Source: a virus. Taken from it: a stretch of DNA of 64,000 nt. The notes below the pieces were generated by a model. That model was not told where the DNA came from, searched no databases, and worked only from the letters and a program-made list of their open reading frames with translations. Positions 10,452 through 50,767 of the stretch are shown here, piece after piece. Each line of letters opens with the position of its first letter. Positions within the stretch are counted from its first letter, which is position 1. Position numbers and translations under genes: made by a program. Location: IMG/VR virus record IMGVR_UViG_3300035171_000016, positions 1-64,000 of that record. One strand, given 5' to 3'.

Positions 10452-11243
10452 TTAAAATGCCATTGGTTGCAGTTTTTGGATTGGCGTAATTTTAATTGAG
10501 CCTTCCTTTTTCTTTCCATCGTCGTATAAATCGGTTGCGGTAAATTTAAATCCGCAAATACCATATTCATGCGGACAATTATGCCCCATTTTTTGCTCTG
10601 GAATAAAACCATTAACCATTTGTAAAAGTTTAGGTTTAATTGCGGGCCAAAACATTCTATCTTCATCGGAATATAGAATTTTATTATCTAGATATTCCAT
10701 AATATCATTATTGCCGTCATAATGAATGCCGACACGAATAAGCCAAGTAAGCAAGCTAATACGATAAGGCTGCGTCCAGAACAAAGGAATTACGGCCAAA
10801 TAACGGTTTGCAACATCCAAATTATAAAATACGGTTTTTTGTTTAATTTTAAACTTTTTCTCGAAATGATTAATTAGATTTTGAATATTAAATAGATTAT
10901 CTTTTAAAAGCTTGGTATGTTCATCCTGTTTACCATATTTTCCACCACCAGAATAAGGCAAAATTCCAAAAACTAAATGAGCAACTTTATTCTTTTCATC
11001 AAATAAGCCTTCAATATATTCACTTTCCAAACCATAAACACTCCAATTTTTATGAGAATGTTGAGAATCTACCTGTTCATGTAAAAAATCCTTGCAAGCA
11101 GTCAGGGGATATTTAGTTGTAATTTTATCTCCGTCTCTGATAGCAAAAGCATAGCCCGCTCCCCAATTGCGGCCTTCTCTTAAAATCTTACGATTTTGTT
11201 TATCAATTAAAATAGGTTTAAATTCTACTGTTTTTTTAGTCAT
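10452..11243 (-). CDS. hypothetical protein, 263 aa
   Basis: Large soluble protein with YPLTACKDFLHEQV, an acidic middle and GHNCPHEYGICGF near the C-terminus (two Cys and His). No family recognised. Promoter 11258-11286 immediately upstream. Size and composition suggest an enzyme or structural partner, but nothing in it decides. Confidence 0.7.
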   Translation of the reverse strand: MTKKTVEFKPILIDKQNRKILREGRNWGAGYAFAIRDGDKITTKYPLTACKDFLHEQVDSQHSHKNWSVYGLESEYIEGLFDEKNKVAHLVFGILPYSGGGKYGKQDEHTKLLKDNLFNIQNLINHFEKKFKIKQKTVFYNLDVANRYLAVIPLFWTQPYRISLLTWLIRVGIHYDGNNDIMEYLDNKILYSDEDRMFWPAIKPKLLQMVNGFIPEQKMGHNCPHEYGICGFKFTATDLYDDGKKKEGSIKITPIQKLQPMAF

Positions 11244-12466: not shown

Positions 12467-12979
12467 TTAAATTTTATCAGTTATTAGAATTCCTAAATTA
12501 TGGTCAACTTCATGTTGAACAGTAAACGAGCCATTATATCTATTAATTACTTCGCCTTTTCTTTTTCTGCTTTCGTCAAAATATTCTATATGAACTGACT
12601 CGTATCTTTTAATTTTAATTGGCTTTTCTAACCTAATAGAACCACAATTAGTATCTGTTTCTATTAATTCTCCAAGATATTGCTTTATTTTGGGATTAAT
12701 CATTATCTGGCAATAAGCGTTCTTAGTTCCACGATTTTTAACTATTCCGATTATATTAAATGGAACTCCTACATTGGCCCCGCTCATTCCGTGAGGCAAT
12801 TTATATCCGTCCATCTTATTTAAAGCAGCGAATCTTATTAAATTACAACTGGCCGCAACAACAGCCCTATAAATAGGATTAGAATTAAATAATCTTATAT
12901 TAACATCAAACAATACAGATTTAAGAAAAACAGTATCTTCTTTGTTATCTACATGAGTAAGATAATCAGAAATATTCAT
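12467..12979 (-). CDS. def: Peptide deformylase-like protein
   Basis: HEVDH (156-160) is the metal-binding and catalytic motif III. SGANVGVP (66-73) and NCGS (111-114) stand in for motifs I (GxGLAAxQ) and II (EGCLS), both diverged, so activity needs proof. The family removes the formyl group from new protein N-termini; phage copies are known to act on rapidly made virion or host proteins. Its ATG overlaps the stop of the YopX gene 12976-13362. Confidence 0.8.
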   Translation of the reverse strand: MNISDYLTHVDNKEDTVFLKSVLFDVNIRLFNSNPIYRAVVAASCNLIRFAALNKMDGYKLPHGMSGANVGVPFNIIGIVKNRGTKNAYCQIMINPKIKQYLGELIETDTNCGSIRLEKPIKIKRYESVHIEYFDESRKRKGEVINRYNGSFTVQHEVDHNLGILITDKI

Positions 12980-13362
12980 TTTAACAATTCCTTATTCTCA
13001 AAAATATTTCCAATTATTTTAATATCTGTATATTTTTCAAAATTGTCACCATCACCATACCATCCGCGAGGGTCTAAATTTGTTGACGACAAAACAATAA
13101 CCGGAATAATATGTTTTTCAAAATCTTTTGGCTCTTTAAATGCTTCGTTATAAATAGCTTCTACAATATCACCTTCGTAAATTTCTTTTCCATTTTTATC
13201 TTTAAGGCCAATGAATTGCTGAACTATACTTTTAGAAGTTGTCCCAAAAATATCTCCATGAGACAACCAGTTTAAAGCATCTGTAAGTGTAAAATATCTA
13301 AATCCAAAACGCTTTCCGATGTTATACGCATCCCAAACTCTAAATTTAATTTCTCGGTTCAT
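12976..13362 (-). CDS. YopX family protein
   Basis: NREIKFRVWDAYN, FIGLKDKNGKEIYEGDIV and IKIIGNIFENKELL are the YopX blocks; 128 aa. Translationally coupled to def downstream and to the amidotransferase-like gene upstream (1-nt overlap with its ATG). Confidence 0.88.
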   Translation of the reverse strand: MNREIKFRVWDAYNIGKRFGFRYFTLTDALNWLSHGDIFGTTSKSIVQQFIGLKDKNGKEIYEGDIVEAIYNEAFKEPKDFEKHIIPVIVLSSTNLDPRGWYGDGDNFEKYTDIKIIGNIFENKELLK

Positions 13363-14012
13363 TAAATTAGAGAATTTGACATAAACTTATTTAAAATATC
13401 TTGCGACCATTTTATAGTTTCGTTAAATCTATCATCACCATATAAAGATTCATTATGATTTTGAAAAGCTAGAAAATTAATCTTTTTGTACCAAACTACT
13501 TCTGGTTCTTTTTCGCATTTTACGTTTTGGTTATAACCGTTGTAATGATAAGGAGATAGATTAGCCCACGCTAAAAGTTCATAATCTTCACTCTCTTTTA
13601 AATTAGACACGTCTTGCATATTGTGGTGCGTGGAATTCATTTCAAGAATTTTTCCGTCAAATGTAGTAACTTCGTGAATACCGGGATGTCTAACATCCTG
13701 ATAAACTGCACCTCCAGCCAATGCCGCTCCCCATTGCGAAGATTTGCAAATACCAATTATTTTTTTTCCTAATTTAATTGCTGTTTGAAAATCCGCATAT
13801 TCTAAAGCATCTGTCTTTTCGTCGCAATATAATCTACCGCTATCAGGTTGGTTATAATAATGCGCTCCTACATCACTTCCCCCCAAACCAAGACACAAAT
13901 CAGCTTCTTTAATATTTTTGGTAAATCCTGTACCCTGTAACCAGTTAGCATAGCCACAATCGTTTCCGCCGCCAATTACATAGATTAGTCTATTGTTTTT
14001 ATTTTTACGCAT
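13362..14012 (-). CDS. Class I glutamine amidotransferase-like protein
   Basis: 216 aa. GICKSSQ (with the nucleophile Cys), GGAVYQD, MNSTHHN and a late FQNHNE resemble GATase1/gamma-glutamyl hydrolase proteins (GICRGxQ, NSxHHQ, QFHPE). It begins with a GGGNDCGYANWLQG segment not typical of the family. It could hydrolyse a gamma-glutamyl bond, which would fit the amidoligase cluster 2 kb away; this link is inference. Confidence 0.68.
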   Translation of the reverse strand: MRKNKNNRLIYVIGGGNDCGYANWLQGTGFTKNIKEADLCLGLGGSDVGAHYYNQPDSGRLYCDEKTDALEYADFQTAIKLGKKIIGICKSSQWGAALAGGAVYQDVRHPGIHEVTTFDGKILEMNSTHHNMQDVSNLKESEDYELLAWANLSPYHYNGYNQNVKCEKEPEVVWYKKINFLAFQNHNESLYGDDRFNETIKWSQDILNKFMSNSLI

Positions 14013-15955: not shown

Positions 15956-16879
15956 TCAAACTTTAATATTCCAATTTTTATAAAACGTATCAGTAGAGTA
16001 CTTCTTTTTAGACTCCTTTTTGACACGGCTAAATAGCTCTTTAGGTAGATTAGCCTGTTTTAATAGCTTTTCTGCTAATGCCTTATCGCAATTATTAATC
16101 GCATTTTGAACCTCTTTAGTATCAATCAAGTCCAAAACCTTTTGATAGGTATTATTAAAAATATGAGATAGAGAATATTCGACTAAATCATAAGTTAGTT
16201 CTACCAAACTAGGGGAATTTAGCATATAGTTACTCATAAAGCGGCTTTCGCAACCCCACGGAGTAATTCTAAAACTGCCAGACGTTCCATATTTCTTGCG
16301 GCGGATAACAGACGTTTCATCATTATCCCACAAAATAGAACTTAAACCTAAATAAATTTCAACCATTTTAAGAGCGTTTTCCTTATTTTCCAAAGATGCC
16401 TTTAGAATGTCCGCGCCAAGATGGATATGAGAAGAGCCGCTACGCATTGTGTCGGTAAACTCGCCAAGCTCGTTAATTTTCTTTTCCCAAAATGAGAATT
16501 CGGGATTGCAACCTACTTGAAGCGGGTCAATACCGTGAGCCGCCTCTAGCTCGTTTTCCTTAAAGAAGTGTGCCGACTTAACAACAATTCGATGATTCTT
16601 GCCTAAATAGTTTTGAGTTTTTTGGAAAGCCGTCTTAAATCTATTTACGAAATCCTTTTTATTATCAGCCGGAGCAAAACTAGCCTCTAACAAAGAATTA
16701 TCAGCATAAATCTTAATTTGCTGGCCTTTGTCTAGGATAATAGGATTATGCTTGTCTCGTTTCAAAACAGGAATGCTTGATTGAATTTCTCCGTTAGGCT
16801 TGGCGATATAAATTTCAGGGTCTCCGCCAATGGTAAACATAGGCTTAACCGACATTTTCTTTACGAGTGTTTTGTTCAT
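15956..16879 (-). CDS. COOH-NH2 ligase (phage amidoligase) 1
   Basis: 307 aa with the ordered motifs of the glutamine-synthetase-like amidoligases: GGDPEIYI (18-25), LLEASFAP, GSSHIHLG (148-155) and CESR (210-213), which supply metal and ATP ligands. The family joins a carboxylate to an amine using ATP. Two more copies (23975, 26447), an ATP-grasp ligase and class II amidotransferases lie in the next 11 kb, so it probably belongs to a multi-enzyme peptide or isopeptide pathway. Substrate unknown. Promoter 16918-16946. Confidence 0.82.
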   Translation of the reverse strand: MNKTLVKKMSVKPMFTIGGDPEIYIAKPNGEIQSSIPVLKRDKHNPIILDKGQQIKIYADNSLLEASFAPADNKKDFVNRFKTAFQKTQNYLGKNHRIVVKSAHFFKENELEAAHGIDPLQVGCNPEFSFWEKKINELGEFTDTMRSGSSHIHLGADILKASLENKENALKMVEIYLGLSSILWDNDETSVIRRKKYGTSGSFRITPWGCESRFMSNYMLNSPSLVELTYDLVEYSLSHIFNNTYQKVLDLIDTKEVQNAINNCDKALAEKLLKQANLPKELFSRVKKESKKKYSTDTFYKNWNIKV

Positions 16880-16917
16880 ATTGTTTTGTATATTCTTTAG
16901 TTTTTTATTACGGATTT

Positions 16918-16946
16918 ATATTAATGAATAGTTTTTGGTTTGTCAA
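16918..16946 (-). promoter_or_regulatory. Sigma70-like promoter, leftward
   Basis: TTGACA, 17-nt spacer, TAATAT, consensus-grade; drives amidoligase 1. Confidence 0.75.
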
Positions 16947-17019
16947 TAGTTTTTCCAAATTTTTCCAGCGGCCAATTGATTTTCTTTTGCAAGCATTTCT
17001 AATCTATTATTATATAAAT

Positions 17020-17373
17020 CTAATTGTTTTTATTCCATTCTTTTACCTTTTTCTCGGTAAGAGTTTTGGCTAATTTAATACATTCTGCGGACGTATCTAA
17101 ATGAGGAAAATCAAATTGTAATAAATCAATATTATCTGATAAATAAGCCTTATCAAGTCTCTGCCATTTAGTAAACCATCCTTTAAATTTATAATAAATA
17201 CAATAATATTCACGATGATATTTCTCTACTTTTACTTTAAAGGTATCATTATAACCAAACAATTTCTTGACCGACAAAACAATATGCGGCCAATTATGCT
17301 CAATAATTTCCTTCGTTTCTTTCAGGTTTTGAAAGAATAGCGAGTCTTTTTGTTTGTTTTTGTTTTTCTTCAT
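17020..17373 (-). CDS. hypothetical protein, 117 aa; possible C-terminal frameshift
   Basis: Basic N-terminus (KKNKNKQKDS) then KVEKYHREYYCIYYKFKGWF. Stops at TAG in NKNN*. One extra A in the A5 run near 17031-17035 would continue into a natural helical tail (QLDLYNNRLEMLAKENQLAA...) ending at 16943. So the gene may be 1-nt frameshifted. No domain recognised. Confidence 0.62.
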   Translation of the reverse strand: MKKNKNKQKDSLFFQNLKETKEIIEHNWPHIVLSVKKLFGYNDTFKVKVEKYHREYYCIYYKFKGWFTKWQRLDKAYLSDNIDLLQFDFPHLDTSAECIKLAKTLTEKKVKEWNKNN

Positions 17374-17374
17374 A

Positions 17375-18016
17375 TTAAAATTTAAATGGCTCGGTTAATA
17401 CTTTTTCGTAAATAGATAGTTTTTTAGGCTTGAAGTTTTTGCCAACTAAATTTTCATTAATAAAGCCAATACTTCTATGTTCAAAATAATCTACTACCCC
17501 CTCTGCATCCTCATAATTAAGTACATTAATATTTCCTTTAAGAAAATGCTCAATAGCCGGTTTAATAGAACTAGCCAAACCGTAAGCATCAAAACACCTA
17601 CTAAAATCCTTACCATTATAATAATTAGAGGCTCTTAAAAATAACGTCAGAAATCCGCGCCGAATAGAGTTTTCTTGCCAAAACTTAGAAATATTACTAA
17701 TTGCAATAAGGTTTTTGTGATTAGTTTTAGAAAAAACAAGTTTATCTTTTAAAGCTAATTTCTTTTCAATTATACTAAAAAATTCATTAATTAGTTCAAT
17801 ATCAATATTAGTCTTTTGCCATCCAAAAATATCTAAACCGTGTCTAAAACTACTATATTCAAATTCTTCTCTACAAGTATCTGAATCGCTAATAAAATAT
17901 TCGTTGTCAAATACGCCACCATTTTTTAAATTAAAAGAAACATATGTACCACCATCACTAGAATAACCTAAATTTCCATATTCATCGTGAATAGTTATTT
18001 CCTTTTTATTAATCAT
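17375..18016 (-). CDS. hypothetical protein, 213 aa, in amidoligase cluster
   Basis: DGGTYVSFNLKNGGVFDNEY and SFRHGLDIFGWQ at the N-terminus; helical C-terminal two-thirds. No family recognised. 1 nt from 17020-17373 and 7 nt after the cyclotransferase-like gene, so one operon with 18024-19133. Might be a substrate or partner of the ligases (inference). Confidence 0.65.
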   Translation of the reverse strand: MINKKEITIHDEYGNLGYSSDGGTYVSFNLKNGGVFDNEYFISDSDTCREEFEYSSFRHGLDIFGWQKTNIDIELINEFFSIIEKKLALKDKLVFSKTNHKNLIAISNISKFWQENSIRRGFLTLFLRASNYYNGKDFSRCFDAYGLASSIKPAIEHFLKGNINVLNYEDAEGVVDYFEHRSIGFINENLVGKNFKPKKLSIYEKVLTEPFKF

Positions 18017-18023
18017 AAATGAA

Positions 18024-18383
18024 TCAATTCCAATCGCCAGATTCTACCTTTTCTCGGCCTTTAAGTTTTTCCTTGTCCATCATATAAAAGGTAGCTTCGA
18101 TATTGTCAACATTAATTTTTACAGGAGTATATCCCGCACCAAGCTCCATTCCGTTTATCATTTCGGCAGCATGATTATCAACCTTATGAAGCTCAAATTT
18201 AACTTTACCATTACCTTTACAAATGGCCGGATAATAGGTAAGAGAATACATTTCGTAGCCAGATAATTCAATATCTTTAATGTATTTTTGACTACCCTTG
18301 CCAAAACGGTCAAAGTTATACCCTCGTTTAGAGTTCTTTCGGAGCGAGCCGAAAAACAACATATATTGAAAGTTTTTATTCAT
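18024..18383 (-). CDS. Gamma-glutamylcyclotransferase-like (AIG2/GGCT fold) protein
   Basis: 119 aa. FFGSLRKNSKRGYNF near residue 10 is the YGxLRxGxxN substrate loop; SGYEMYSLTYYPAI and MINGMELGAGYTP follow the GGCT order with a candidate catalytic Glu. The fold releases pyroglutamate from gamma-glutamyl amines. GGCT-fold proteins typically accompany amidoligase/ATP-grasp systems, where they would trim gamma-glutamyl products; that fits this cluster. Confidence 0.75.
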   Translation of the reverse strand: MNKNFQYMLFFGSLRKNSKRGYNFDRFGKGSQKYIKDIELSGYEMYSLTYYPAICKGNGKVKFELHKVDNHAAEMINGMELGAGYTPVKINVDNIEATFYMMDKEKLKGREKVESGDWN

Positions 18384-18389
18384 TTTAAA

Positions 18390-19133
18390 TTAAGCAAAAA
18401 TATTATCGTTTTTAATTAGTTTATCAACGGGTTTCTTAGGTTTAATCTCTAATGGTGCGACTGGCTTAACAGGATTTATCGGATTAGCAGGCTTAATAAC
18501 CTGTTCTACTTTTGGAGCGGCTACTTTATGCTCGGTAGGAGAAAAATATCCATGTACTTTGTCACTGGACATTTCTTTTAGTCTTTTTTGAAGTGCCTCC
18601 AATTTAATTGGATTAAAGTTTTCACTTCTGCAAGTGCCGCCATAAGGGCCAAAGTGCATTAGTCCGTGACATGACAAAGTATAGTTACCATTCTTTGATA
18701 AGGTAATCTTATCATCGCTAATATCTTTGTGAATTTCTTGAAACTTGTAAAATTGAGTATCAAAATTTTCTGCACGGTTTTTAAATAAACCATTAATAAT
18801 TTCATATCCTTCGTCAACTAAACGAAAGGCAGATAGATATACCAAAACATTATTCTTATTCCAATTATCAGTTTTTAGAATGTATTCAATGTTTTCAATC
18901 TTTTTGCCGTTTTCGATTTTCTTAAAACTCCAATCGCGGCCAGTAAAAGTTTTAGTAATAAAATCTAGATAAAAATCAATTTCTTCGTTGGTTAGCCTTT
19001 TATCAATATTAGCAAGATAACGAATTGAAGTAATACCATTATCAGCCGACGATAAAGAAGAAAAGCAGATGCTATTCTTTTTGTTTTCTTTTCCGTCTAT
19101 GGTTTCCCACCAAGTAACATCGTAATTAGCCAT
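18390..19133 (-). CDS. hypothetical protein, 247 aa, in amidoligase cluster
   Basis: N-terminal globular domain with TWWETIDGKENKKNS and SGITSIRYL-type strands, a CHGLMHFGPYGGTCRS loop near residue 155, and a Pro/Lys-rich flexible C-terminus (NPINPVKPVAPLEIKPKKP). No family recognised. 6 nt upstream of the cyclotransferase-like gene. Confidence 0.65.
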   Translation of the reverse strand: MANYDVTWWETIDGKENKKNSICFSSLSSADNGITSIRYLANIDKRLTNEEIDFYLDFITKTFTGRDWSFKKIENGKKIENIEYILKTDNWNKNNVLVYLSAFRLVDEGYEIINGLFKNRAENFDTQFYKFQEIHKDISDDKITLSKNGNYTLSCHGLMHFGPYGGTCRSENFNPIKLEALQKRLKEMSSDKVHGYFSPTEHKVAAPKVEQVIKPANPINPVKPVAPLEIKPKKPVDKLIKNDNIFA

Positions 19134-19166
19134 AATATATAAAGTTTAATTATACTTGGTTAAATA

Positions 19167-19466
19167 TTAATCAATATTAACACCAGTTTCAGAAGCCTTT
19201 TTAGCAAGTCGGCCAATAGCTACGGAAACGGCCACGCGACGATTGAAATTCTCTTTACTATGGCAAACCGCCTCTGCCGAAAAATCTTGTCCGGCCTTGG
19301 TAGTTAGAGAAAGAATCGTTTTACCTGATGTCGCCAAAATTCGGTTTTGCCAGCCATTTTTACGAATTTCGCAAATAGGAAATAATTCCTTATGTCCGCT
19401 AACAGCGCGAAAATGAGAAACGCGGATTTTGTTGCCAGCCTGCCGAATTGATTTAATAGTTGTCAT
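19167..19466 (-). CDS. hypothetical protein, 99 aa
   Basis: SIRQAGNKIRVSHFRAVSGHKE... then Ala-rich helix; basic and GC-richer than neighbours. No family recognised. Promoter 19489-19516. Confidence 0.6.
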   Translation of the reverse strand: MTTIKSIRQAGNKIRVSHFRAVSGHKELFPICEIRKNGWQNRILATSGKTILSLTTKAGQDFSAEAVCHSKENFNRRVAVSVAIGRLAKKASETGVNID

Positions 19467-19488
19467 ATATAGTTTTATTAACGTGTTT

Positions 19489-19516
19489 ATATTAATGGTT
19501 ATGGTTTAAATGTCAA
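19489..19516 (-). promoter_or_regulatory. Sigma70-like promoter, leftward
   Basis: TTGACA, 16-nt spacer, TAATAT; drives 19167-19466. Confidence 0.72.
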
Positions 19517-19539
19517 GAATTTATAATGGATTTTTTAAT

Positions 19540-20004
19540 TTAAATAGTTTTTTCAGTTTTGGTTTCTTCCGATACTTGAATTTTTTCAGTTTTTACTTCA
19601 AAATCAGAATAATTTACGCCATCTAGCTTACTAGGCATATCGCCAAACGTATAAACCTGCGAGCTAAAATGTTGATTATTAGATATAAACCTTTCTTCTG
19701 GAATTGAATCAAATTCCTGTTTAGCTTTAACTGCGGCCAGCTTTTTTACCATCTTTGTTCTTTTATATCTATCTGTAAATGAACCGTCTGGATTGCTATA
19801 TTTCCAGTTAAATTGCATATTTTTGGCGCGAGCATAAACATAATCTTCCTCGGTTGTTAGAAAATAATAAAAATTAGGAGATATTTCCTGTAAATCCGAA
19901 TTGAATTTGTTATTAAAGTTATATAGAGAAAAATTAATTGGCTCAATTTCCTCTAACCTTCCACCTAGATATACTGAATTACCGATTGTATGTTTAATTA
20001 TCAT
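19540..20004 (-). CDS. hypothetical protein, 154 aa
   Basis: Starts MIIKHTIGNSVYLGGRLEE and has an aromatic-rich middle (NFYYFLTTEEDYVYARAK) and an acidic Glu/Thr tail. No family recognised. Between amidoligase-cluster genes, own promoter. Confidence 0.62.
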   Translation of the reverse strand: MIIKHTIGNSVYLGGRLEEIEPINFSLYNFNNKFNSDLQEISPNFYYFLTTEEDYVYARAKNMQFNWKYSNPDGSFTDRYKRTKMVKKLAAVKAKQEFDSIPEERFISNNQHFSSQVYTFGDMPSKLDGVNYSDFEVKTEKIQVSEETKTEKTI

Positions 20005-20010
20005 GGTGTT

Positions 20011-20039
20011 ATATTAATGGACAGAATCGGTAATGTCAA
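20011..20039 (-). promoter_or_regulatory. Sigma70-like promoter, leftward
   Basis: TTGACA, 17-nt spacer, TAATAT; drives 19540-20004. Confidence 0.75.
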
Positions 20040-20043
20040 ATGT

Positions 20044-20820
20044 TTATTTTTGGACAAACTGTTCTTTTTTAGCCACTAATTTAGGTAATTTAGGAAACTT
20101 TTTATTAATTAGGCTTTTAATTCCGGTTTGATAGAATTTTCTTACCTGTGGGGTTTCAATAGTAACAGAACTATTTCCTTCTAGAAAATAATAGTTACGA
20201 TTTTTAACCAAAATATCAAATCCGCATAGATGAAGATTTAAAGCTTTTGCGGCTTTTAAAGCCATTCTATGCAATCTAATTGGCGTCTTGCGAATCCTTG
20301 CATAACGATAATTACTGCGGCAAATATCGGAATCTGATTTTTTAGCTTTTTCGCGGGAGCAGGTCAAAGTTTTATTTCCACAAACAAAAACTCTTACCTC
20401 TTTATCTGTTTTAATAAATTCCGTTGCATAAAATCCGTTAGGAATTTGAAACGGCCCCTTTTTTAATTGGAAGTCTTTTCCGGCAGCATGAGAAGTCGGG
20501 CGATAAACAACTAATTTATTCTTTGGAACTTTGTCTAAATAGATTTTAGGAGTTTTTACTACTTTGCTTAAAACTTGGATTGCCTCGTTTTTTCTTACGT
20601 TTAATTTAATGCTTTCCAAAGGATTTAAAACATTTTTAAAATCTTTACTATCACAAAAGATTAAATCTTTGGCGGCAACATCGTAACCATAACCCCACCG
20701 AACGATAACATGATTATCATAATTTTCTTTAAAATCAGAAAAGTAAGTTTGGGTCTTAAATCCTAATTTTGAGGCCGATTTTAATTCCGAGTCAATTGTA
20801 AGTAAAATAACATTTTCCAT
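20044..20820 (-). CDS. ATP-grasp ligase
   Basis: 258 aa. KLVVYRPTSHAAGKDF (lysine and Gly-rich loop), YATEFIKTDKEVRVFVCG, then GFDILVKNRNYYFLEGNSS with the D...E.N metal ligands of the ATP-grasp fold. Enzymes of this fold make acyl-phosphate intermediates and join carboxylates to amines. The missing long N-terminal domain is as in phage ATP-grasp proteins. 45 nt behind a class II amidotransferase gene. Confidence 0.8.
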   Translation of the reverse strand: MENVILLTIDSELKSASKLGFKTQTYFSDFKENYDNHVIVRWGYGYDVAAKDLIFCDSKDFKNVLNPLESIKLNVRKNEAIQVLSKVVKTPKIYLDKVPKNKLVVYRPTSHAAGKDFQLKKGPFQIPNGFYATEFIKTDKEVRVFVCGNKTLTCSREKAKKSDSDICRSNYRYARIRKTPIRLHRMALKAAKALNLHLCGFDILVKNRNYYFLEGNSSVTIETPQVRKFYQTGIKSLINKKFPKLPKLVAKKEQFVQK

Positions 20821-20865
20821 AATTAATAATAATTTAAATAAACCGGCTATCTAACTTGTTAAATA

Positions 20866-21645
20866 TCAGTCGTAATCGTAAGGAAATTCCTTAGTTACTA
20901 CTCCAATGCTAGCGGCTTGACCACCTTGATAATGTACCCCGCGCCAATCTTCGTAAGCAATAACCTTTTCCTCTTTTTTATAACCGTTCCATTCAAAAGG
21001 CTTAACCTTGTGAGTAAGATATTTACCATCTTTATCAAATTTAAAATATCCGTGAGTAAGCTCAATATTCTTGTACTTATCATCATTTAATTCAGAGGAA
21101 AGAATAAAGCTTTTATCCTCTCTCATATGAGCGGCTAATTGGCCGGAAATTTTCGATACTTCTAGCGTACCGTCTAGATTTAGATTGCAAAATACGCCGC
21201 CCCAATTAACGCGTTCTGTAAAATCTTTAGAGCCTACGCGACTAATAATCTCTGTAGCAGCAGCAGAATCCGTGTCCGAAACATATCCCGGAATAGTTGA
21301 AAGATACATTCTCAATAAACCTGAATAATTTAATGTACCATTATGAATCAAAGCAATTTTCCCGTTCATTGATACAAAAGGATGGGCATTTTCCTTGCTG
21401 ATAATACCACAACTCGCTCTACGGATATGAATAAGTGTCCATCCGGGATGGGGCAAATGAGAAAGAAATTCTCTGCCTTTCTTAACCACTTTTTCTAGAG
21501 ATTGAGCGTATTTGTTCACTACAAACTTGCCATCCTTTAGATAGACTTCGCCAACACCATCCTTGTTTTCACCATATTGGTTAGCAAGAATTTCTAAAGC
21601 CTCTTTTTTGGTTACACCAGAATTAATCATCAATACTCGGCACAT
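20866..21645 (-). CDS. Class II (Ntn) glutamine amidotransferase 1
   Basis: 259 aa beginning MCR, so Cys2 becomes the N-terminal nucleophile. GWTLIHIRRASCG, NAHPF, ALIHNGTLNY and SDTDSA are the glutaminase motifs of the GlmS/PurF-type Ntn domain; no synthetase domain follows. It could feed ammonia to a ligase or act as an amidase. Followed by the ATP-grasp gene. Confidence 0.85.
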   Translation of the reverse strand: MCRVLMINSGVTKKEALEILANQYGENKDGVGEVYLKDGKFVVNKYAQSLEKVVKKGREFLSHLPHPGWTLIHIRRASCGIISKENAHPFVSMNGKIALIHNGTLNYSGLLRMYLSTIPGYVSDTDSAAATEIISRVGSKDFTERVNWGGVFCNLNLDGTLEVSKISGQLAAHMREDKSFILSSELNDDKYKNIELTHGYFKFDKDGKYLTHKVKPFEWNGYKKEEKVIAYEDWRGVHYQGGQAASIGVVTKEFPYDYD

Positions 21646-21678
21646 AATTATTTTTTTATTTATTGTTTAACTGGACTA

Positions 21679-21707
21679 AATATAATGAACTCAAATTATA
21701 ATGTCAA
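21679..21707 (-). promoter_or_regulatory. Sigma70-like promoter, leftward
   Basis: TTGACA, 17-nt spacer, TATATT; drives amidotransferase 1 and ATP-grasp. Confidence 0.72.
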
Positions 21708-21723
21708 ACTAATTTCGCTTTTT

Positions 21724-21760
21724 TATTAAAAAACCGTCCAAAACTTAATCTGGACGGTTT
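21724..21760 (-). terminator. Rho-independent terminator
   Basis: Perfect hairpin AACCGTCCA/TGGACGGTT with a T-rich tail on the minus strand. Ends transcription of 21784-22359. Confidence 0.85.
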
Positions 21761-21783
21761 TGTTTGATTATTTTATAATTGAA

Positions 21784-22359
21784 TTACTTCTTACCTTTGA
21801 GCAAATCCAGAACCGGGGTATTAATCCCAGCCGGAATAGACTTTAGATAGGCAACCTGTTCCTTCTTAACCTTAGCGGGCTGGCCTTGGACATACTTAAC
21901 AGCATTCTCAACCGTGAAAGGCACATTAATTCTGTCTTTAAATGCTCTGCCAAGTAAATTGACGATAACGCCATCATATCCGGCCTTTTTGGCCCATTGA
22001 GCAATATTGCGGCTAACATTAGCAAACTTGTTGGCACGTTCGCTGGCTACCTTTTGCTTCAAATCCAAAACACCAATCTGCTTTTCGCCAATATTTTCAA
22101 TCTTCATAAAATTGGCAATTGCCTTGTTCAAGTCGGTTTCCTTGGCGGTAGCGAAATAAACAGCGTTATTAACGCCGTTTTCCTCGGAAACGGCCAAAAC
22201 AAGCTTTTCAGTCTTGCTTACCCGACACATTTCGATTGGGACTTGCGGCCCATTCTTGTTAGTCCACTTGGTTTTAACCAGAGCGGCAGTTTTCTTTGTG
22301 TTGGTTACAAGGCCACCAAACGAAAGGATGGCGATTTTATTTGTGTTCTTTTTGTTCAT
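21784..22359 (-). CDS. Possible GGCT-like protein (YGSLIWDP-type), 191 aa
   Basis: IAILSFGGLVTNTK at residue 8, KTKWTNKNGPQVPIEMCRVS and KLVLAVSEENGV follow the order seen in proteins with IAxxGYGSLIWDP...W..DGPxLPxEFARxS, a branch of the gamma-glutamylcyclotransferase fold. The match is by motif order only. Codons are GC-richer than neighbours and it has its own promoter and strong terminator, so it is probably highly expressed. Confidence 0.6.
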   Translation of the reverse strand: MNKKNTNKIAILSFGGLVTNTKKTAALVKTKWTNKNGPQVPIEMCRVSKTEKLVLAVSEENGVNNAVYFATAKETDLNKAIANFMKIENIGEKQIGVLDLKQKVASERANKFANVSRNIAQWAKKAGYDGVIVNLLGRAFKDRINVPFTVENAVKYVQGQPAKVKKEQVAYLKSIPAGINTPVLDLLKGKK

Positions 22360-22412
22360 ATTTATTTTTTGTTTTTTTGTTTTTAGTTTTATTGTTTAAT
22401 TACGATGGATTT

Positions 22413-22441
22413 ATATTAATGGTTAAAAATTGATTTGTCAA
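22413..22441 (-). promoter_or_regulatory. Sigma70-like promoter, leftward
   Basis: TTGACA, 17-nt spacer, TAATAT; drives 21784-22359. Confidence 0.75.
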
Positions 22442-22448
22442 ATGTTTT

Positions 22449-22889
22449 TTAAGAATTTTTTAGTAATTCTGGATTCTCGAAAATATTGCCAATTACTAAA
22501 CATGATTCATAGCTTAATGGATGCCCTAATCCTTGTTCGCAATTATATCCGATTTCCGTAGCATAAAATCCAATACAATTTGTATATGCGTCTCTACCAA
22601 AATCTACTTCACCGAATTTAACCTCTAGTTTCCAGCATTTTTTAATTGTTCTTTCGTCTTTGACTTGTAAAATGTCCCCCTCATAAATTTCCTTACCGTT
22701 TTTATCTTTTAAACCAGTATATTGCTGAATAACCCAATTATCTTTTTTAGGGTAGTGTTTTTCGTTGCCAAAAGGCCAGTCATTCACACCATTTTGAGTT
22801 AATCCGCCGTCCATATCAACAGCAAAAAAATCATTATACCATTGATTATCCTGTTTACTCCAAAGGCGAAATTTAATTTCTCTATTCAT
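22449..22889 (-). CDS. YopX family protein
   Basis: NREIKFRLWSKQDNQW, YTGLKDKNGKEIYEGDIL and VIGNIFENPELL; 146 aa, with an insert before the C-terminal block (GYNCEQGLGHPLSYESC). Function of the family is unknown. Confidence 0.88.
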   Translation of the reverse strand: MNREIKFRLWSKQDNQWYNDFFAVDMDGGLTQNGVNDWPFGNEKHYPKKDNWVIQQYTGLKDKNGKEIYEGDILQVKDERTIKKCWKLEVKFGEVDFGRDAYTNCIGFYATEIGYNCEQGLGHPLSYESCLVIGNIFENPELLKNS

Positions 22890-22911
22890 TTATTAAATAA
22901 TTTTAAATTAA

Positions 22912-23904
22912 TCAAAAAAAGTCTCCGCGATTATATTGGCTAGAACCACTAAAAAATTCTTTTTCTTCCTCGGCTTGTGTTTTGTTTTTTAATACCGGCG
23001 GAATAATCGGCGGTATTAATTTATAATTAACAGTATTATGAGCTAAACTATTCGGCGGCAAAGGCTTAGGATATTTTAAGCTATATTTACTATAATCAAG
23101 CTTCAATCCGTCCGCATTAGATTCTGATTTCCACCATCTTAGGTATTTATACCTCTCTGTTTTAGCAGAAAATGAATAGGGCTGCCGAAGGATTGGATAT
23201 TCAACTTCCGGCGATGTTTTTTCTTCATCTTTTTTTTTACTAGACTGGTGATGCTGGCCGTGTCCAACATCATAGTTTTCAAGATTGTTATAGTTTTTAC
23301 CATCATACCAACCATAAGTCTTGCTCCATTTCCAGATTAAATTAGAATAAAGAATACCATCCTCTTCTGAAAAATCACCATAATATCTAAAGGCTTGTTC
23401 ATCGGTAACGCTATTATGGCCGATAACTACAAACTTGCCAGTAGCAGAGTGTAAAAAGTTATTATTCTTATGTTGGGATAGAATCATCGCAATGGCGCGA
23501 GTATCAGACATATCTTGCGGCTTTCCATCCTTGTCTTTAGGAATACTAAGGCCAGAAGCGGCAAGGCATTTTCTCCAATCTACTTCTGTACCGTTATGAA
23601 TTAATACTCTTTCTGTTTCACCATATAGTTTAAGCGGAGACTCCTTAGAAATTTCAAAAGGATGCGTCAAAAGCGGGTCAGTTTTAAGTCCAGTAGATGT
23701 TTTTCTAAAATGAATAACAAAAGGCAATTCGGTTGCCAAAGATAGATTATAAATTTCCTCTACGCTAGAAATACCTTTGATATATTCGACTTTACGCTTG
23801 TCATTCATCCAAGTAATAGATGCTCCGTCGTCATTTTCAAAAAACGCTCGACGAATGGCCTCTAGGGTCATTTTTTGGTCAACACAGATAGCAATTAGAC
23901 ACAT
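22912..23904 (-). CDS. Class II (Ntn) glutamine amidotransferase 2
   Basis: 330 aa starting MCL (Cys2 nucleophile). FVIHFRKTSTG, HPFEI, VLIHNGTEVDW and MSDTRAIA are the Ntn-glutaminase motifs. The C-terminal ~120 residues (with HHQSSKKKDEEK and a Pro/Tyr-rich tail) are unique. Same cluster as amidotransferase 1, but diverged, so probably a different substrate. Confidence 0.83.
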   Translation of the reverse strand: MCLIAICVDQKMTLEAIRRAFFENDDGASITWMNDKRKVEYIKGISSVEEIYNLSLATELPFVIHFRKTSTGLKTDPLLTHPFEISKESPLKLYGETERVLIHNGTEVDWRKCLAASGLSIPKDKDGKPQDMSDTRAIAMILSQHKNNNFLHSATGKFVVIGHNSVTDEQAFRYYGDFSEEDGILYSNLIWKWSKTYGWYDGKNYNNLENYDVGHGQHHQSSKKKDEEKTSPEVEYPILRQPYSFSAKTERYKYLRWWKSESNADGLKLDYSKYSLKYPKPLPPNSLAHNTVNYKLIPPIIPPVLKNKTQAEEEKEFFSGSSQYNRGDFF

Positions 23905-23928
23905 AATTTTATTTTTTAAGCTGGTTTT

Positions 23929-23956
23929 ATATTAATGGATATATTTTAAATAGCAA
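23929..23956 (-). promoter_or_regulatory. Sigma70-like promoter, leftward
   Basis: TTGCTA, 16-nt spacer, TAATAT; drives amidotransferase 2. Confidence 0.6.
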
Positions 23957-23974
23957 GGATATTTTGAGATTTTA

Positions 23975-24928
23975 TTAAAAATCTACGTCTACATTTTTTA
24001 CAATAGGTTTAGGGTCATTATCGTAAATTACTGCATAATCTTTAAGATTATTAGCGGCAATCTTTTTATTAGGAAAGGCTACTGGTTTAATAACAGCACC
24101 TTTATAGAAAGGTTTAATTAAATCTTCTTTTGCCGCCTCTTTGTCAATAGCGTCTAAACTATAATCTCTACTTTTCACAATTCCTTTAAACATGAAAAGA
24201 TTGAATTTCGATTTTTTATTAATTACAATTTCTTTCTTTTCGCATTCTTCGTCTGTATCTAGCTCCAATCCTTTAGAGAAATTAAAAGGTTTAGGTGGAT
24301 TTGCATCTAAATAAGAATTAATACAATCAATATGAGCCATGAACGCGGATATAGCCGTGTCCATAGATACGAAAGTCGGCATTAGGCGCGATTCAATGGT
24401 GCGGTAAAGAGAATAGGCGTAATGCAACTGGCTATAACGGCCCGGGTCATTAGGAATTTTCTTTTTAAGAAAAATCTGGTCATAAGGCTTAAATTCATCG
24501 CGGCAAAACTTATTTTTGTTTTCCAGACGTTCCCAGAAATAGTTATTATTAATTGGATATTTCTCGCCCCAATTCTTCATAAACTCTACGAAGTATTTTC
24601 TGAAATTAGGAGACATTAGAGCAACATATTCAGAAATAGAATTGAAAGAGAAATGCCAATGGGTCCCGCACATTTCTTGCGTTTCTAGACCGTTATTAGT
24701 CTTAAAATCATAAGGCACGTTTTGGTATTTTTTATAGTTAAATTCAATCCATTTAACAACGTCCTCGACTTCTGCCATTGGCTTAGTAATAACCGCTTCG
24801 CCGCAACAGACAGAGGATTTAAAACCATTCATTTTAATGCCTAAATCTTCGTGCAAATCTTCGCGGCCATAATTCCAGCCGCCTTCAATTTCGCCGCCAA
24901 TAAGGTGAATGTATTTTGATTGTTTCAT
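23975..24928 (-). CDS. COOH-NH2 ligase (phage amidoligase) 2
   Basis: 317 aa. IGGEIEGG (10-17) matches the first Glu-bearing strand of the amidoligase fold, CGTHWHFS (87-94) the HxH motif, and TIESRLMP (177-184) the ESR motif. It binds ATP/Mg and should form an amide bond. Most diverged of the three copies, with a Lys-rich C-terminal domain from ~230 on. Promoter 24941-24968. Confidence 0.78.
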   Translation of the reverse strand: MKQSKYIHLIGGEIEGGWNYGREDLHEDLGIKMNGFKSSVCCGEAVITKPMAEVEDVVKWIEFNYKKYQNVPYDFKTNNGLETQEMCGTHWHFSFNSISEYVALMSPNFRKYFVEFMKNWGEKYPINNNYFWERLENKNKFCRDEFKPYDQIFLKKKIPNDPGRYSQLHYAYSLYRTIESRLMPTFVSMDTAISAFMAHIDCINSYLDANPPKPFNFSKGLELDTDEECEKKEIVINKKSKFNLFMFKGIVKSRDYSLDAIDKEAAKEDLIKPFYKGAVIKPVAFPNKKIAANNLKDYAVIYDNDPKPIVKNVDVDF

Positions 24929-24940
24929 AAATAGGACACT

Positions 24941-24968
24941 ATACTAATACAAAGGTTTTAATTGTCAA
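24941..24968 (-). promoter_or_regulatory. Sigma70-like promoter, leftward
   Basis: TTGACA, 16-nt spacer, TAGTAT; drives amidoligase 2. Confidence 0.65.
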
Positions 24969-24980
24969 TAACTAAACCGT

Positions 24981-25460
24981 TTAAACTTCCTCATTTTCTA
25001 CAATGGTAGCGGAAAATTCCATCGCAATAGAAATATCACGCATATAGGTTGCCCAAATAATTTTAATTTGATTCTTAAAATTCATGGCCAATTCTTCAAT
25101 CTTATCATCCGATACAGGAAAAGTACCGAAATTAAACACAACGCCATCCTTCAAATCTCTGGCTAGCAAAAGAGATAGGTTCAAATATCCATTGATATGA
25201 AACATATCCTTTTCGGTTCTAAATTGTCCGGGAACTCCGGGTAATTCGTAACCATTACCGCCACGCGGTAGGTAGCAATCAACGCCGCCTAGTTTAAAAG
25301 TCTTATCGTTGCCAGAATCGCGGAGAAACTTAAAGTTGCGGCTGCTTTTAAGTTTAATCTGGAAACCATTTTCTGCGCTCGAAAGGATTTCCATGCTACC
25401 AAGGCTAATGCGTGAGCCATTCTTTTTAACAGTAGTAATTTCTTGTGCTTTTTCGTCCAT
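24981..25460 (-). CDS. hypothetical protein, 159 aa
   Basis: Beta-rich N-terminal half (RISLGSMEILSSAENGFQIK), YLPRGGNGYELPG loop, helical end. GC-richer than neighbours. No family recognised; its place among ligase genes makes it a possible substrate protein, without direct support. Confidence 0.6.
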   Translation of the reverse strand: MDEKAQEITTVKKNGSRISLGSMEILSSAENGFQIKLKSSRNFKFLRDSGNDKTFKLGGVDCYLPRGGNGYELPGVPGQFRTEKDMFHINGYLNLSLLLARDLKDGVVFNFGTFPVSDDKIEELAMNFKNQIKIIWATYMRDISIAMEFSATIVENEEV

Positions 25461-25505
25461 AGGTTTTATTTTTTATGTTTTAGTTGTTTAAATTATTTAT
25501 TCGAT

Positions 25506-25534
25506 ATATTAAAGGCCGATATGAGAAAAGTCAA
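25506..25534 (-). promoter_or_regulatory. Sigma70-like promoter, leftward
   Basis: TTGACT, 17-nt spacer, TAATAT; drives 24981-25460 and lies inside the 3' end of 25509-25925. Confidence 0.68.
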
Positions 25535-25925
25535 CAATTTTTTCAAGAAAGTTTTTATTAATTCGTTTAAAGCCTAAATCGCTGGCATTAAAAATTGCAA
25601 CCTTGTTTTCTAGATAACCAACAAGGCAATTAATGGCTGCGGCAGCAAGAAATTCATGTTCGCGCAAATCTTTTCTAAGTCCAATAGTAAAACTATCAAA
25701 CTTCAATTCTTCAAATTCTACCGGAATACCGTAACGCTTTAAAAGATTTCTAATTTCTTTAGTAGTTTTAAACTCTGGCATCTTTTGATAACTAATAAGC
25801 ATTGGCGGATTGTTTTCCTGCTTTAGTCCATAGACTCGGTAATAAGTAGGACAACGAAACCTATCAAGCTTGGACAGCTTTTCAATTTTTGTTAAATGCG
25901 CGTCAACCGAAAAATAAATACTCAT
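25509..25925 (-). CDS. hypothetical protein, 138 aa; paralogue of 8692-9240
   Basis: YRVYGLKQENNPPMLI and FTIGLRKDLREHE are shared with 8692-9240, which has a longer C-terminus. Both sit beside genes with their own promoters. Function unknown. Confidence 0.7.
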   Translation of the reverse strand: MSIYFSVDAHLTKIEKLSKLDRFRCPTYYRVYGLKQENNPPMLISYQKMPEFKTTKEIRNLLKRYGIPVEFEELKFDSFTIGLRKDLREHEFLAAAAINCLVGYLENKVAIFNASDLGFKRINKNFLEKIVDFSHIGL

Positions 25926-25931
25926 ATATGT

Positions 25932-25959
25932 AGATTAATGGATTTTTTTATATTGTCAA
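25932..25959 (-). promoter_or_regulatory. Sigma70-like promoter, leftward
   Basis: TTGACA, 16-nt spacer, TAATCT; drives 25509-25925. Confidence 0.68.
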
Positions 25960-25963
25960 GAAA

Positions 25964-26410
25964 TTATCGTTTAGGATTTTCAAAAATATTACCAATTACT
26001 TTAATTCCTTCTAATTTAAAAGTGGTAATATAATTATGTTTAAATTCAAATTCATCAATAGCAATTACATCATATTTATGGCGTTTATCAATCAATCTAA
26101 CACCAAACAAAGGACAATAAGCTACTTCAAATTTATCAGCATTCGTATGCGAAATAACAATATCGCCCTCATAAATTTCTCTACCATTTTTGTCTAATAG
26201 ACCAGTAAATTGTAATCTTTTTAAACCTGTTTGATATTGCCAAAAACGCGAGCAAATAGTACCGCTTTTAAAATGCTTGTTCAAAGGTTGGCAGCTTTGA
26301 TTATCCGCACTAATAGTAAAACTTTCCCATTGATATTGCCCCATACGTTCGTACCCAATAATTTCCTTAGTATGTTCTCGGATAACTCTAAATTTAATTT
26401 CTCTATTCAT
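25964..26410 (-). CDS. YopX family protein
   Basis: NREIKFRVIREHTKE, FTGLLDKNGREIYEGDIV and IKVIGNIFENPKR; 148 aa, fourth and longest YopX copy here. Confidence 0.87.
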   Translation of the reverse strand: MNREIKFRVIREHTKEIIGYERMGQYQWESFTISADNQSCQPLNKHFKSGTICSRFWQYQTGLKRLQFTGLLDKNGREIYEGDIVISHTNADKFEVAYCPLFGVRLIDKRHKYDVIAIDEFEFKHNYITTFKLEGIKVIGNIFENPKR

Positions 26411-26418
26411 TTGTTAAG

Positions 26419-26446
26419 ATATTAATAGTTAATTCTCAAATGTCAA
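26419..26446 (-). promoter_or_regulatory. Sigma70-like promoter, leftward
   Basis: TTGACA, 16-nt spacer, TAATAT; drives the YopX gene starting at 26410. Confidence 0.72.
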
Positions 26447-27337
26447 TTAAAAAATATCCTTTAAATCCTTAGCCCAGATAGCGTCAAAAGGAATCTTTTT
26501 AGGTTCAATGCGGACGGCGTTATCAGCCAAGCCCCAAGTTTCCTTCATATCTAAAACGCGGCCTTTACCATCCGTAGGAAACCAAGTTAATTTATTTTTA
26601 ATCAAAAACTTAAAAATATCAATATATTCCTTGTATTGAGGATATAGTTCCATTTGAGTAATTTCTGACCAAATATTATCAAAATGATTATAAATCTTAT
26701 CAATTTTGACGCCTAAAAAGTCTTTATCATCAAATCTATCTACCGGAGAAAATGATTTATTATTTAATACTTCATAAGCTACAGTTTTAGCCAAACAAAG
26801 ATGCGCGGCGGCAATTTGCGGACTAACGAGCCAAGATGAAAAACAGCGAGACTCCATGCCCCACTTTTGCGGACGCCAATCGTTTAGCCAACCATAATTA
26901 TGATTTTCATTATTGCGTCTTTTAAACGCTTCTGTTTTGTTTTCTACGGCCAAAGATAGCGAGCCAGCATAATTAGCAATAATTCGATTAATAATCTCTG
27001 GGGCAATAACATCCTTTTTAACTCCAAAATGAATATGTCCGCCAATAGATTTGTTAATTTTAAATGAACCGGCCTGCCAATCATAAGTAAAACACTTAGG
27101 ATGTTTACTAACGTGTCTCTTAAATGCGCTCCGAATAAAGTTAATTATTTCTAGCGGGTCCTCACTTGGACAAGTTCTAACTTCTGAAATATGTTCTACG
27201 GCTTCAATACCGTCATATCCAGTTTCGCCTTTAATGTCACCAATCAAAGGAGCAACTTTGCCGTTATGAATCATTAAATATTCCCCGTCCTGTCCTAATG
27301 AAAATCTAATAGGATTCTCTTTAATGTTTTTATTCAT
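26447..27337 (-). CDS. COOH-NH2 ligase (phage amidoligase) 3
   Basis: 296 aa. RFSLGQDGEYLM (11-22) corresponds to the GxDPE strand, SEVRTCPSED to the second acidic strand, GGHIHFG (99-105) to the HxH motif and MESRCFSS (161-168) to ESR. Closest in layout to amidoligase 1. With two other copies nearby it suggests stepwise ligations on related substrates. Overlaps no neighbour; 17 nt behind an AbrB-like gene. Confidence 0.82.
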   Translation of the reverse strand: MNKNIKENPIRFSLGQDGEYLMIHNGKVAPLIGDIKGETGYDGIEAVEHISEVRTCPSEDPLEIINFIRSAFKRHVSKHPKCFTYDWQAGSFKINKSIGGHIHFGVKKDVIAPEIINRIIANYAGSLSLAVENKTEAFKRRNNENHNYGWLNDWRPQKWGMESRCFSSWLVSPQIAAAHLCLAKTVAYEVLNNKSFSPVDRFDDKDFLGVKIDKIYNHFDNIWSEITQMELYPQYKEYIDIFKFLIKNKLTWFPTDGKGRVLDMKETWGLADNAVRIEPKKIPFDAIWAKDLKDIF

Positions 27338-27354: not shown

Positions 27355-27579
27355 TTATTCTTGGGGTATGAAGTATTGTTTTTCAAAATAGACAGAAGGA
27401 ATAACACAATCTGGAATTTTTTTACTAATTTGAAGTATTCCGTTAGTTATAGTTAAATAGGCATCCTCGTTTTCCTTTCCTTCGTACAACTCTTTAGCTA
27501 ATGCGGCTGGCAGAGTAATAGATGCACCTTTTTTACCAAACTTAATTTTACTTTTAATGAATTTAATATTGTTTGCCAT
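27355..27579 (-). CDS. AbrB/SpoVT-like DNA-binding protein, 74 aa
   Basis: SKIKFGKKGASITLPAALAKEL followed by EDAYLTITNGILQIS matches the swapped-hairpin AbrB fold of MazE and SpoVT proteins. Would bind DNA as a dimer. Lies upstream of amidoligase 3 in the same unit, so it may regulate it (inference). Confidence 0.62.
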   Translation of the reverse strand: MANNIKFIKSKIKFGKKGASITLPAALAKELYEGKENEDAYLTITNGILQISKKIPDCVIPSVYFEKQYFIPQE

Positions 27580-31046: not shown

Positions 31047-31062
31047 AATTTAATGTAGTTAT

Positions 31063-31090
31063 ATGTTAATGGTTAAATTTTAAAAGTCAA
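31063..31090 (-). promoter_or_regulatory. Sigma70-like promoter, leftward
   Basis: TTGACT, 16-nt spacer, TAACAT; drives nadV. Confidence 0.58.
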
Positions 31091-49639: not shown

Positions 49640-49714
49640 TGGAGGGAAAGCCGGAACTTGCATCCGGTTGACAATATTACCAATATTGCGTTTTACTATA
49701 TAAACCACAATCCC
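49640..49714 (-). tRNA. tRNA-Thr(GGT)
   Basis: Anticodon stem CAATA/TATTG, loop TTGGTAA. T-stem CCGGA/TCCGG. CCA encoded. Acceptor GGGATTG/CTTTCCC again has two U-U mismatches, like its neighbour. Confidence 0.82.
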
Positions 49715-49721
49715 ATTTAAG

Positions 49722-50025: not shown

Positions 50026-50054
50026 AAAATTAATAATAATTAAAATAACTTCCT

Positions 50055-50336: not shown

Positions 50337-50352
50337 ATTTTGTTTTATAAAA

Positions 50353-50444: not shown

Positions 50445-50448
50445 AAAA

Positions 50449-50533: not shown

Positions 50534-50539
50534 ATTAAA

Positions 50540-50761: not shown

Positions 50762-50767
50762 ATAAAA

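What the first reader, a model, noticed from the sequence alone, without database searches (positions are those of the whole stretch)
15956..27337. Twelve-kilobase amidoligase cluster: three COOH-NH2 ligases, ATP-grasp, two Ntn amidotransferases, GGCT-like trimming proteins
Motifs seen: HxH plus ESR in three amidoligases (15956, 23975, 26447), ATP-grasp D..E.N (20044), Cys2 amidotransferases (20866, 22912), GGCT FGSLRK (18024) and a GGCT-like protein (21784). Known: COOH-NH2 ligases, ATP-grasp and GGCT-fold proteins co-occur in predicted peptide/isopeptide systems in phages and bacteria. Three ligases in one locus suggest successive ligations, e.g. a novel peptide tag, poly-amino-acid chain or cell-wall/protein modification, with glutaminases giving ammonia and GGCTs removing gamma-glutamyl caps. 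Genes 17375, 18390, 19540 and 24981 have no known domain and may be substrates.
Basis: partly seen in the sequence, partly recalled or inferred. Interest (0 to 1): 0.87.

Follow-up and report, generated by a model that had tools for sequence, protein, structure and literature searches.

The report
Phage gamma-glutamyl amide ligase cluster
A large uncultured phage carries a divergent version of a known but never biochemically explained phage gene cluster that appears to build and trim glutamate-type amide bonds, and here it includes a previously undescribed protein family whose predicted shape resembles glutamine synthetase.

Summary
In a 147.8-kb uncultured phage genome, the minus strand encodes three COOH-NH2 ligases (15956, 23975, 26447), an ATP-grasp (20044), two class II glutamine amidotransferases (20866, 22912) and a GGCT (18024), with catalytic motifs intact. 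The second 'GGCT-like' gene (21784) belongs to an unnamed bacterial family and could not be tied to GGCT. The cluster extends beyond the finding to 10452 and includes a gamma-glutamyl-hydrolase-type class I amidotransferase (13362). The kind is known: LUZ24/PaP3, phiEco32-like, crAss-like and Leptolyngbya phages carry the same toolkit. Relatives of the 15956 ligase in 85 loci mostly keep these partners within about 5 kb. In other large phages the set splits into two syntenic blocks, both represented here. Gene 17375 is a paralogue of 10452 in an undescribed family beside the ligase, whose predicted fold resembles glutamine synthetase but lacks the HxH and ExR residues. Best reading: a gamma-glutamyl amide build-and-trim pathway (PuuA/PuuD- or butirosin-like logic) acting on an unknown amine. 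No substrate or product is shown. 18390, 19540 and 24981 have no relatives in the loci examined, so 'substrate' is unsupported for them.

The parts
10452..11243 (-). C16-family protein (263 aa), undescribed family; predicted glutamine-synthetase-like fold without HxH/ExR
   Evidence: Iterative HMM family of 30 members, mostly next to LIG-A; AF2 pLDDT 70, pTM 0.71; rows 1-32 of the structural alignment are all GS/GmaS/PafA, Z 5.1-6.0
12467..12979 (-). peptide deformylase, conserved neighbour in one large relative
   Evidence: PF01327 2e-15; relative at the same place in G018, 8e-31
13362..14012 (-). class I GATase / gamma-glutamyl hydrolase (Peptidase_C26), GAT1
   Evidence: PF07722 2.5e-6, 27.9 bits over cut-off 20.5; phrog_7218 1.9e-22; a relative's best NCBIfam match is gamma-glutamyl-CDP-amidate hydrolase 6.7e-9
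15956..16879 (-). COOH-NH2 ligase A (LIG-A), phiEco32/LUZ24 type
   Evidence: phrog_3815 2.6e-48; GGDPE, HIHLG, CESR motifs
17375..18016 (-). second C16-family protein (213 aa), paralogue of 10452
   Evidence: C16 HMM 9.3e-23 (the sequence is itself a member of that family model); relative beside LIG-A in G001 at 1.7e-5
18024..18383 (-). gamma-glutamyl cyclotransferase (GGCT/GGACT)
   Evidence: PF06094 4.9e-11; FGSL and GMELGAGY motifs
20044..20820 (-). RimK-like ATP-grasp ligase
   Evidence: PF08443 2.4e-10; D..E.N motif
20866..21645 (-). class II (Ntn) glutamine amidotransferase, GAT2
   Evidence: PF13522 2e-7; MC start, HIRRASCG, HNGT, SDTD
21784..22359 (-). member of an unnamed bacterial family carrying an [FY]G[SG]L motif; GGCT identity unproven
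   Evidence: 4 of 299 genomes of one phylum at E<=1e-3, full length; no Pfam or NCBIfam name for the relatives
22912..23904 (-). second class II glutamine amidotransferase
   Evidence: GAT2 profile 96.5%; MC, HFRKTSTG, HNGT, SDTR; relative fused to GGCT in phage C75C1
23975..24928 (-). highly diverged Amidoligase_2-type COOH-NH2 ligase
   Evidence: hhalign 74.4% to the Amidoligase_2 family with collinear motifs; shuffles at most 4.6%
26447..27337 (-). COOH-NH2 ligase B (LIG-B), PF14395
   Evidence: PF14395 1.1e-31, 110 bits over cut-off 25; counterparts in G018, G007, L110, L112, L115

Best explanation
The cluster is a divergent member of the phage amidoligase module. Shown by sequence: three COOH-NH2 ligases of the glutamine-synthetase-like superfamily and one ATP-grasp ligase with intact catalytic motifs, two glutaminase (class II) domains, one class I gamma-glutamyl-hydrolase-type GATase and one gamma-glutamyl cyclotransferase, conserved as a unit across phages. 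Inferred mechanism: the ligases use ATP to join glutamate (or another amino acid) through a side-chain carboxylate to an amine, and the ATP-grasp adds a further residue. The class II domains supply ammonia or glutamate from glutamine. The hydrolase (13362) and GGCT (18024) then remove gamma-glutamyl groups, as PuuD does after PuuA, or BtrG after BtrJ in butirosin synthesis. The end product would be an amidated small amine or short peptide used during infection. The two C16 proteins (10452, 17375) would be diverged GS-fold partners of ligase A, not substrates. The substrate and the benefit to the phage are unknown.
For: Family identities. Catalytic motifs. Neighbourhood: in 42 loci with at least 7 kb on both sides of LIG-A, GAT2 is found in 34, ATP-grasp in 33, Amidoligase_2 in 32, GAT1 in 26 and GGCT in 20; in 27 loci with about 10 kb on both sides, ATP-grasp lies within 5 kb in 22 and at 5-10 kb in 0, GAT1 17 versus 0. 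A GAT1 relative scores best against gamma-glutamyl-CDP-amidate hydrolase and gamma-Glu-GABA hydrolase models, and 13362's weak PDB matches are Lin1909 and 'probable glutamine amidotransferase' chains. A natural GATase II-GGCT fusion exists. The C16 fold resembles GS.
Against: No substrate, product or assay is known. Gamma-glutamyl chemistry is inferred from family membership only, and the LIG-A profile finds no relative of solved structure. GGCT and GAT1 are missing from a good share of loci, so trimming is not obligatory in every lineage. The C16 structural similarity is moderate (Z about 6, below the tool's caution level of 8). 23975 could not be modelled (pLDDT 33).
Confidence: 0.5

Rival explanations
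1. Envelope modification: the ligases attach amino acids to peptidoglycan peptides or surface polymers of the infected cell, blocking other phages (superinfection exclusion), as suggested for phiEco32.
For: Two papers (PMC10580990, PMC11318856) report this as the proposal of Iyer et al. 2009 for phiEco32.
Against: No transport, glycosyl or envelope gene was seen among the recurrent neighbours. In small phages the module lies beside primase and DNA polymerase genes. The original paper could not be read here.
Confidence: 0.2
2. Protein tagging: the module adds glutamyl or short peptide tags to host or virion proteins, with GGCT and hydrolase as erasers.
For: RimK-type ATP-grasp enzymes glutamylate proteins (family knowledge; the window's protein matches RimK models). 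PafA is among the structural neighbours of C16.
Against: GGCT and C26 hydrolases act on small gamma-glutamyl compounds as far as known. No conserved small tag protein was identified: 18390, 19540 and 24981 have no relatives in the loci.
Confidence: 0.15
3. Nucleotide or DNA modification: the amide products decorate a base or a nucleotide precursor.
For: In many small phages the module is next to primase/helicase and DNA polymerase. The 13362 family resembles the gamma-glutamyl-CDP-amidate hydrolase that acts on a nucleotide-linked substrate.
Against: No base-hydroxymethylating or known hypermodification enzyme was recognised in the cluster; in the window the nearest nucleotide genes are NAMPT/Prs, not base modifiers.
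Confidence: 0.08
4. Auxiliary nitrogen metabolism: the genes move nitrogen into glutamate, cysteine and glycine pools (glutathione-like cycle) for the host.
For: Proposed for phage ZRK32, which carries GATase, amidoligase, 'glutathione synthase' and GGCT and raised growth on nitrate or ammonium (PMC10945688).
Against: Three diverged ligases and the undescribed C16 family exceed what nitrogen assimilation needs; the growth effect was not tied to these genes by deletion in the passages read.
Confidence: 0.07

Closest known systems
LUZ24-like phage cluster (PaP3 ORF42-50; UFV-P2 ORF20-29)
   Same: COOH-NH2_lig (PF14395), Amidoligase_2, GATase II, ATP-grasp and GGCT side by side (PMC3890496)
   Different: Window ligase A is about 28% identical to PaP3's; an extra LIG-B and a second GATase II; the Amidoligase_2 member is barely recognisable; C16 proteins instead of PaP3 ORF49/50
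crAss-like phage cr108_1 gp028-gp034 and Leptolyngbya phage Lbo-JY46 clusters
   Same: Both have LIG-A, a class I GATase homologous to 13362, GATase II, ATP-grasp and an Amidoligase_2; the cyanophage also has GGCT, a C16 member and neighbouring PncB/PrsA genes
   Different: No LIG-B recognised in the stretches read; no closely similar DNA
Large uncultured phages G018 (141 kb), G007 (298 kb), L110, L112, L115
   Same: Syntenic second block LIG-B1, Amidoligase_2-like, GATase II x2, LIG-B2, ATP-grasp; G018 and G007 also have the first block C16, LIG-A, GAT1, GGCT
   Different: Their Amidoligase_2 proteins are about 560 aa and their LIG-B carry an extra N-terminal region; the window has one LIG-B and phrog_98 genes interspersed
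PuuA/PuuD and butirosin BtrJ/BtrG pathways
   Same: Logic of gamma-glutamyl addition by an amidoligase and removal by hydrolase or cyclotransferase (own knowledge)
   Different: Cellular pathways with known substrates; no such substrate genes here

Membership tests
Phage COOH-NH2 ligase type 2 (PF14395) | profile score over the curated cut-off | tested here: met
   26447: 110.4 bits; 15956: 27.8 bits; cut-off 25
Phage COOH-NH2 ligase type 2 (PF14395) | G-D-E near the N-terminus, HxHxG and ExR active-site motifs | tested here: met
   Alignments and motif positions
Amidoligase_2 (PF12224), protein 23975 | profile score over the curated cut-off | tested here: not met
   No Pfam match
Amidoligase_2 (PF12224), protein 23975 | remote homology with collinear active-site motifs | tested here: met
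   74.4% against the family alignment; shuffles at most 4.6%
Amidoligase_2 (PF12224), protein 23975 | GS-like fold | tested here: inconclusive
   AF2 model pLDDT 33, unusable
Class II glutamine amidotransferase | N-terminal Cys after Met, HxRx[AS/TS]x-G, NG and SDT motifs | tested here: met
   20866 and 22912
Gamma-glutamyl cyclotransferase, protein 18024 | PF06094 score, YGSL-type loop and catalytic Glu motif | tested here: met
   43.7 bits, cut-off 22.8
Gamma-glutamyl cyclotransferase, protein 21784 | homology to the GGCT family | tested here: not met
   0.5% in profile comparison; no Pfam match
Peptidase_C26 gamma-glutamyl hydrolase | PF07722 cut-off and Cys/His motifs | tested here: met
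   13362: 27.9 bits, cut-off 20.5; GIC and QNHNE
Glutamine-synthetase fold, protein 10452 (C16) | structural match to the GS superfamily | tested here: inconclusive
   Rows 1-32 all GS, GmaS or PafA at Z 5.1-6.0, then CphA 4.8, unrelated chains 4.4; below the tool's caution level of 8
Glutamine-synthetase fold, protein 10452 (C16) | HxH and ExR metal and nucleotide residues | tested here: not met
   Conserved residues are instead C50, E128, R170, G228
Known phage amidoligase module | ligase, ATP-grasp, GATase II and GGCT within a few kb | tested here: met
Graspetide (ATP-grasp ribosomal peptide) maturation system | ATP-grasp maturase model over cut-off | tested here: not met
   TIGR04187 19 bits, cut-off 350; precursor peptides were not searched for

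The most novel reading that the evidence does not exclude
The C16 proteins (10452, 17375) are an undescribed branch of the glutamine-synthetase fold that lost the canonical metal/ATP residues and serves, in several paralogous copies per phage, as substrate carrier, regulator or alternative catalyst for the adjacent amidoligase, in a phage-specific pathway that makes a gamma-glutamyl-protected compound not known from cells.
Probability: 0.3. Interest if true: 0.75.

Novelty: new variant of a known kind. Interest (0 to 1): 0.5.

Why it matters
The phage amidoligase module is widespread (277 phage records match ligase A alone) yet, as far as the papers I could read show, no substrate has been reported. 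This locus shows that the module has a conserved gamma-glutamyl-hydrolase-type partner and, in some phages, an undescribed GS-like protein family beside the ligase, and that large phages carry two ligase blocks. That turns an old open question into concrete tests: gamma-glutamyl amide ligation and cleavage assays with defined proteins, and ligase deletions in cultured LUZ24-like phages.

Tried and rejected
Single-sequence scans of viral contigs with 23975, 20044 and the NAMPT found nothing, because exact octapeptides are too strict. Alignment-based scans worked for LIG-A and found six loci for LIG-B. Searching 30 records for 23975 by sequence gave nothing. The idea that the 74-aa ORF 27355-27579 is a split-off AbrB/MazE-like N-terminal domain of LIG-B was tested and dropped (0.3%, shuffles up to 3.6%). 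Another idea dropped: that 18390 is a third C16 copy (0.1%). A first shuffle control read stale files and was discarded, then rerun. C16 has no sequence-level match to GS or ligases in the PDB or in profile comparison, so its fold assignment rests on the model alone. PADLOC gave no defence-system match. Iyer et al. 2009 is not held in the library.
Full report
WHAT IS THERE. The window is part of a 147,760-base uncultured phage record. Its terminase and DnaE-type polymerase are only distantly related to those of isolates, and no similar DNA exists in 50,697 phage records. All ORFs named in the finding are present on the minus strand.

ENZYME IDENTITIES. 26447 and 15956 pass the PF14395 cut-off, and 15956 also matches phrog_3815 at 2.6e-48. 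18024 is a GGACT/GGCT, 20044 a RimK-like ATP-grasp and 20866 a GATase_6 protein. 22912 joins the class II GATase family in iterative profiles and at 96.5% in profile comparison. 23975 has no family-library hit, but aligns only with the Amidoligase_2 family (74.4%), with its active-site motifs in register. One hundred shuffles reach at most 4.6%, and 107 other ORFs of this phage at most 2.4%. Motif positions in all enzymes were located. A structure model of 23975 failed (pLDDT 33), so its fold is not independently shown.

BEYOND THE GIVEN COORDINATES. 13362-14012 is a class I GATase of the Peptidase_C26 type, homologous to genes inside the amidoligase clusters of crAss-like phage cr108_1 and Leptolyngbya phage Lbo-JY46. 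A relative's best NCBIfam matches are gamma-glutamyl-CDP-amidate hydrolase and gamma-Glu-GABA hydrolase. 10452-11243 and 17375-18016 belong to one undescribed family, called C16 here: 30 members by iterative HMM, several copies beside LIG-A in one phage, also directly beside LIG-A in three contigs binned with bacteria. No Pfam or PHROG match was found for it. An AlphaFold2 model of 10452 (pLDDT 70, pTM 0.71) has no confident Foldseek match in the PDB, but the VIA second look places glutamine synthetases, GmaS and PafA in rows 1-32 (Z 5.1-6.0), with unrelated folds at 4.4 and below. The family lacks HxH and ExR and conserves C50, E128, R170 and G228 instead. The fold similarity is therefore suggestive, not proven.

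CONSERVATION. A scan with a LIG-A alignment found 372 relatives; 80 loci were kept. With the five named-phage loci this gives 85 LIG-A loci in 29 clusters at 50% identity. Of 42 loci with at least 7 kb on both sides, GATase II is present in 34, ATP-grasp in 33, Amidoligase_2 in 32, GAT1 in 26 and GGCT in 20. In 27 loci with about 10 kb on both sides the partners lie within 5 kb and hardly ever at 5-10 kb (ATP-grasp 22 versus 0, GAT1 17 versus 0, GATase II 19 versus 3), which is a real cluster, not background. In large phages a second block is syntenic: LIG-B1, Amidoligase_2-like, GATase II twice, LIG-B2, ATP-grasp. The window has members of both blocks.

FUNCTIONAL LINKS. Phage C75C1 encodes a natural fusion of a 22912-like GATase II with a GGCT carrying both signature motifs. 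Together with the GAT1 hydrolase this points to gamma-glutamyl groups being handled by several enzymes of the module. By family knowledge this resembles PuuA/PuuD (gamma-glutamylation of putrescine, later hydrolysis) and BtrJ/BtrG (gamma-glutamyl protection in butirosin synthesis). The chemistry in this phage is inferred, and the substrate is unknown.

UNKNOWN GENES. 17375 is explained above. 18390, 19540 and 24981 have no relatives in the loci examined, so nothing supports them as substrates. 21784 belongs to a bacterial family of unnamed proteins; its link to GGCT is only the [FY]G[SG]L motif and was not supported by profile comparison.

LITERATURE. The same gene set is tabulated for UFV-P2, a LUZ24-like phage (PMC3890496). 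Superinfection exclusion through cell-wall modification is attributed to Iyer et al. 2009 by PMC10580990 and PMC11318856; the original could not be read. PMC10945688 proposes nitrogen metabolism for phage ZRK32. I found no paper that identifies a substrate.

VERDICT. A real, conserved cluster of a known kind in a strongly diverged form, with one undescribed companion family as the most interesting part.

Noticed in passing
29583-32355: NAMPT-type gene and a Prs-like gene with a nucleoside deoxyribosyltransferase-like ORF between them; possible NAD salvage or NAD-reconstitution counter-defence pair. PncB and PrsA also neighbour the cluster in Leptolyngbya phage Lbo-JY46.
   Followed up: partly
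12976-13362, 22449-22889, 25964-26410: Three paralogous phrog_98 proteins (YopX-like by memory) are interspersed among the ligase genes.
   Followed up: partly
15079-15951: A plus-strand endonuclease VII/HNH-like ORF sits between GAT1 and LIG-A against the direction of the cluster; may be a homing-type insertion.
   Followed up: no
12467-12979: A peptide deformylase lies in the cluster and at the same place in G018; it could speed exposure of the N-terminal Cys of the two class II GATases (inference).
   Followed up: no
L101 7003-8298 and 13673-14890; L107 13585-14697: LIG-B proteins of other large phages carry an extra N-terminal region; one has a sub-threshold MazE/AbrB match.
   Followed up: partly
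49640-58908: Twelve tRNA genes cluster in this part of the phage genome.
   Followed up: no
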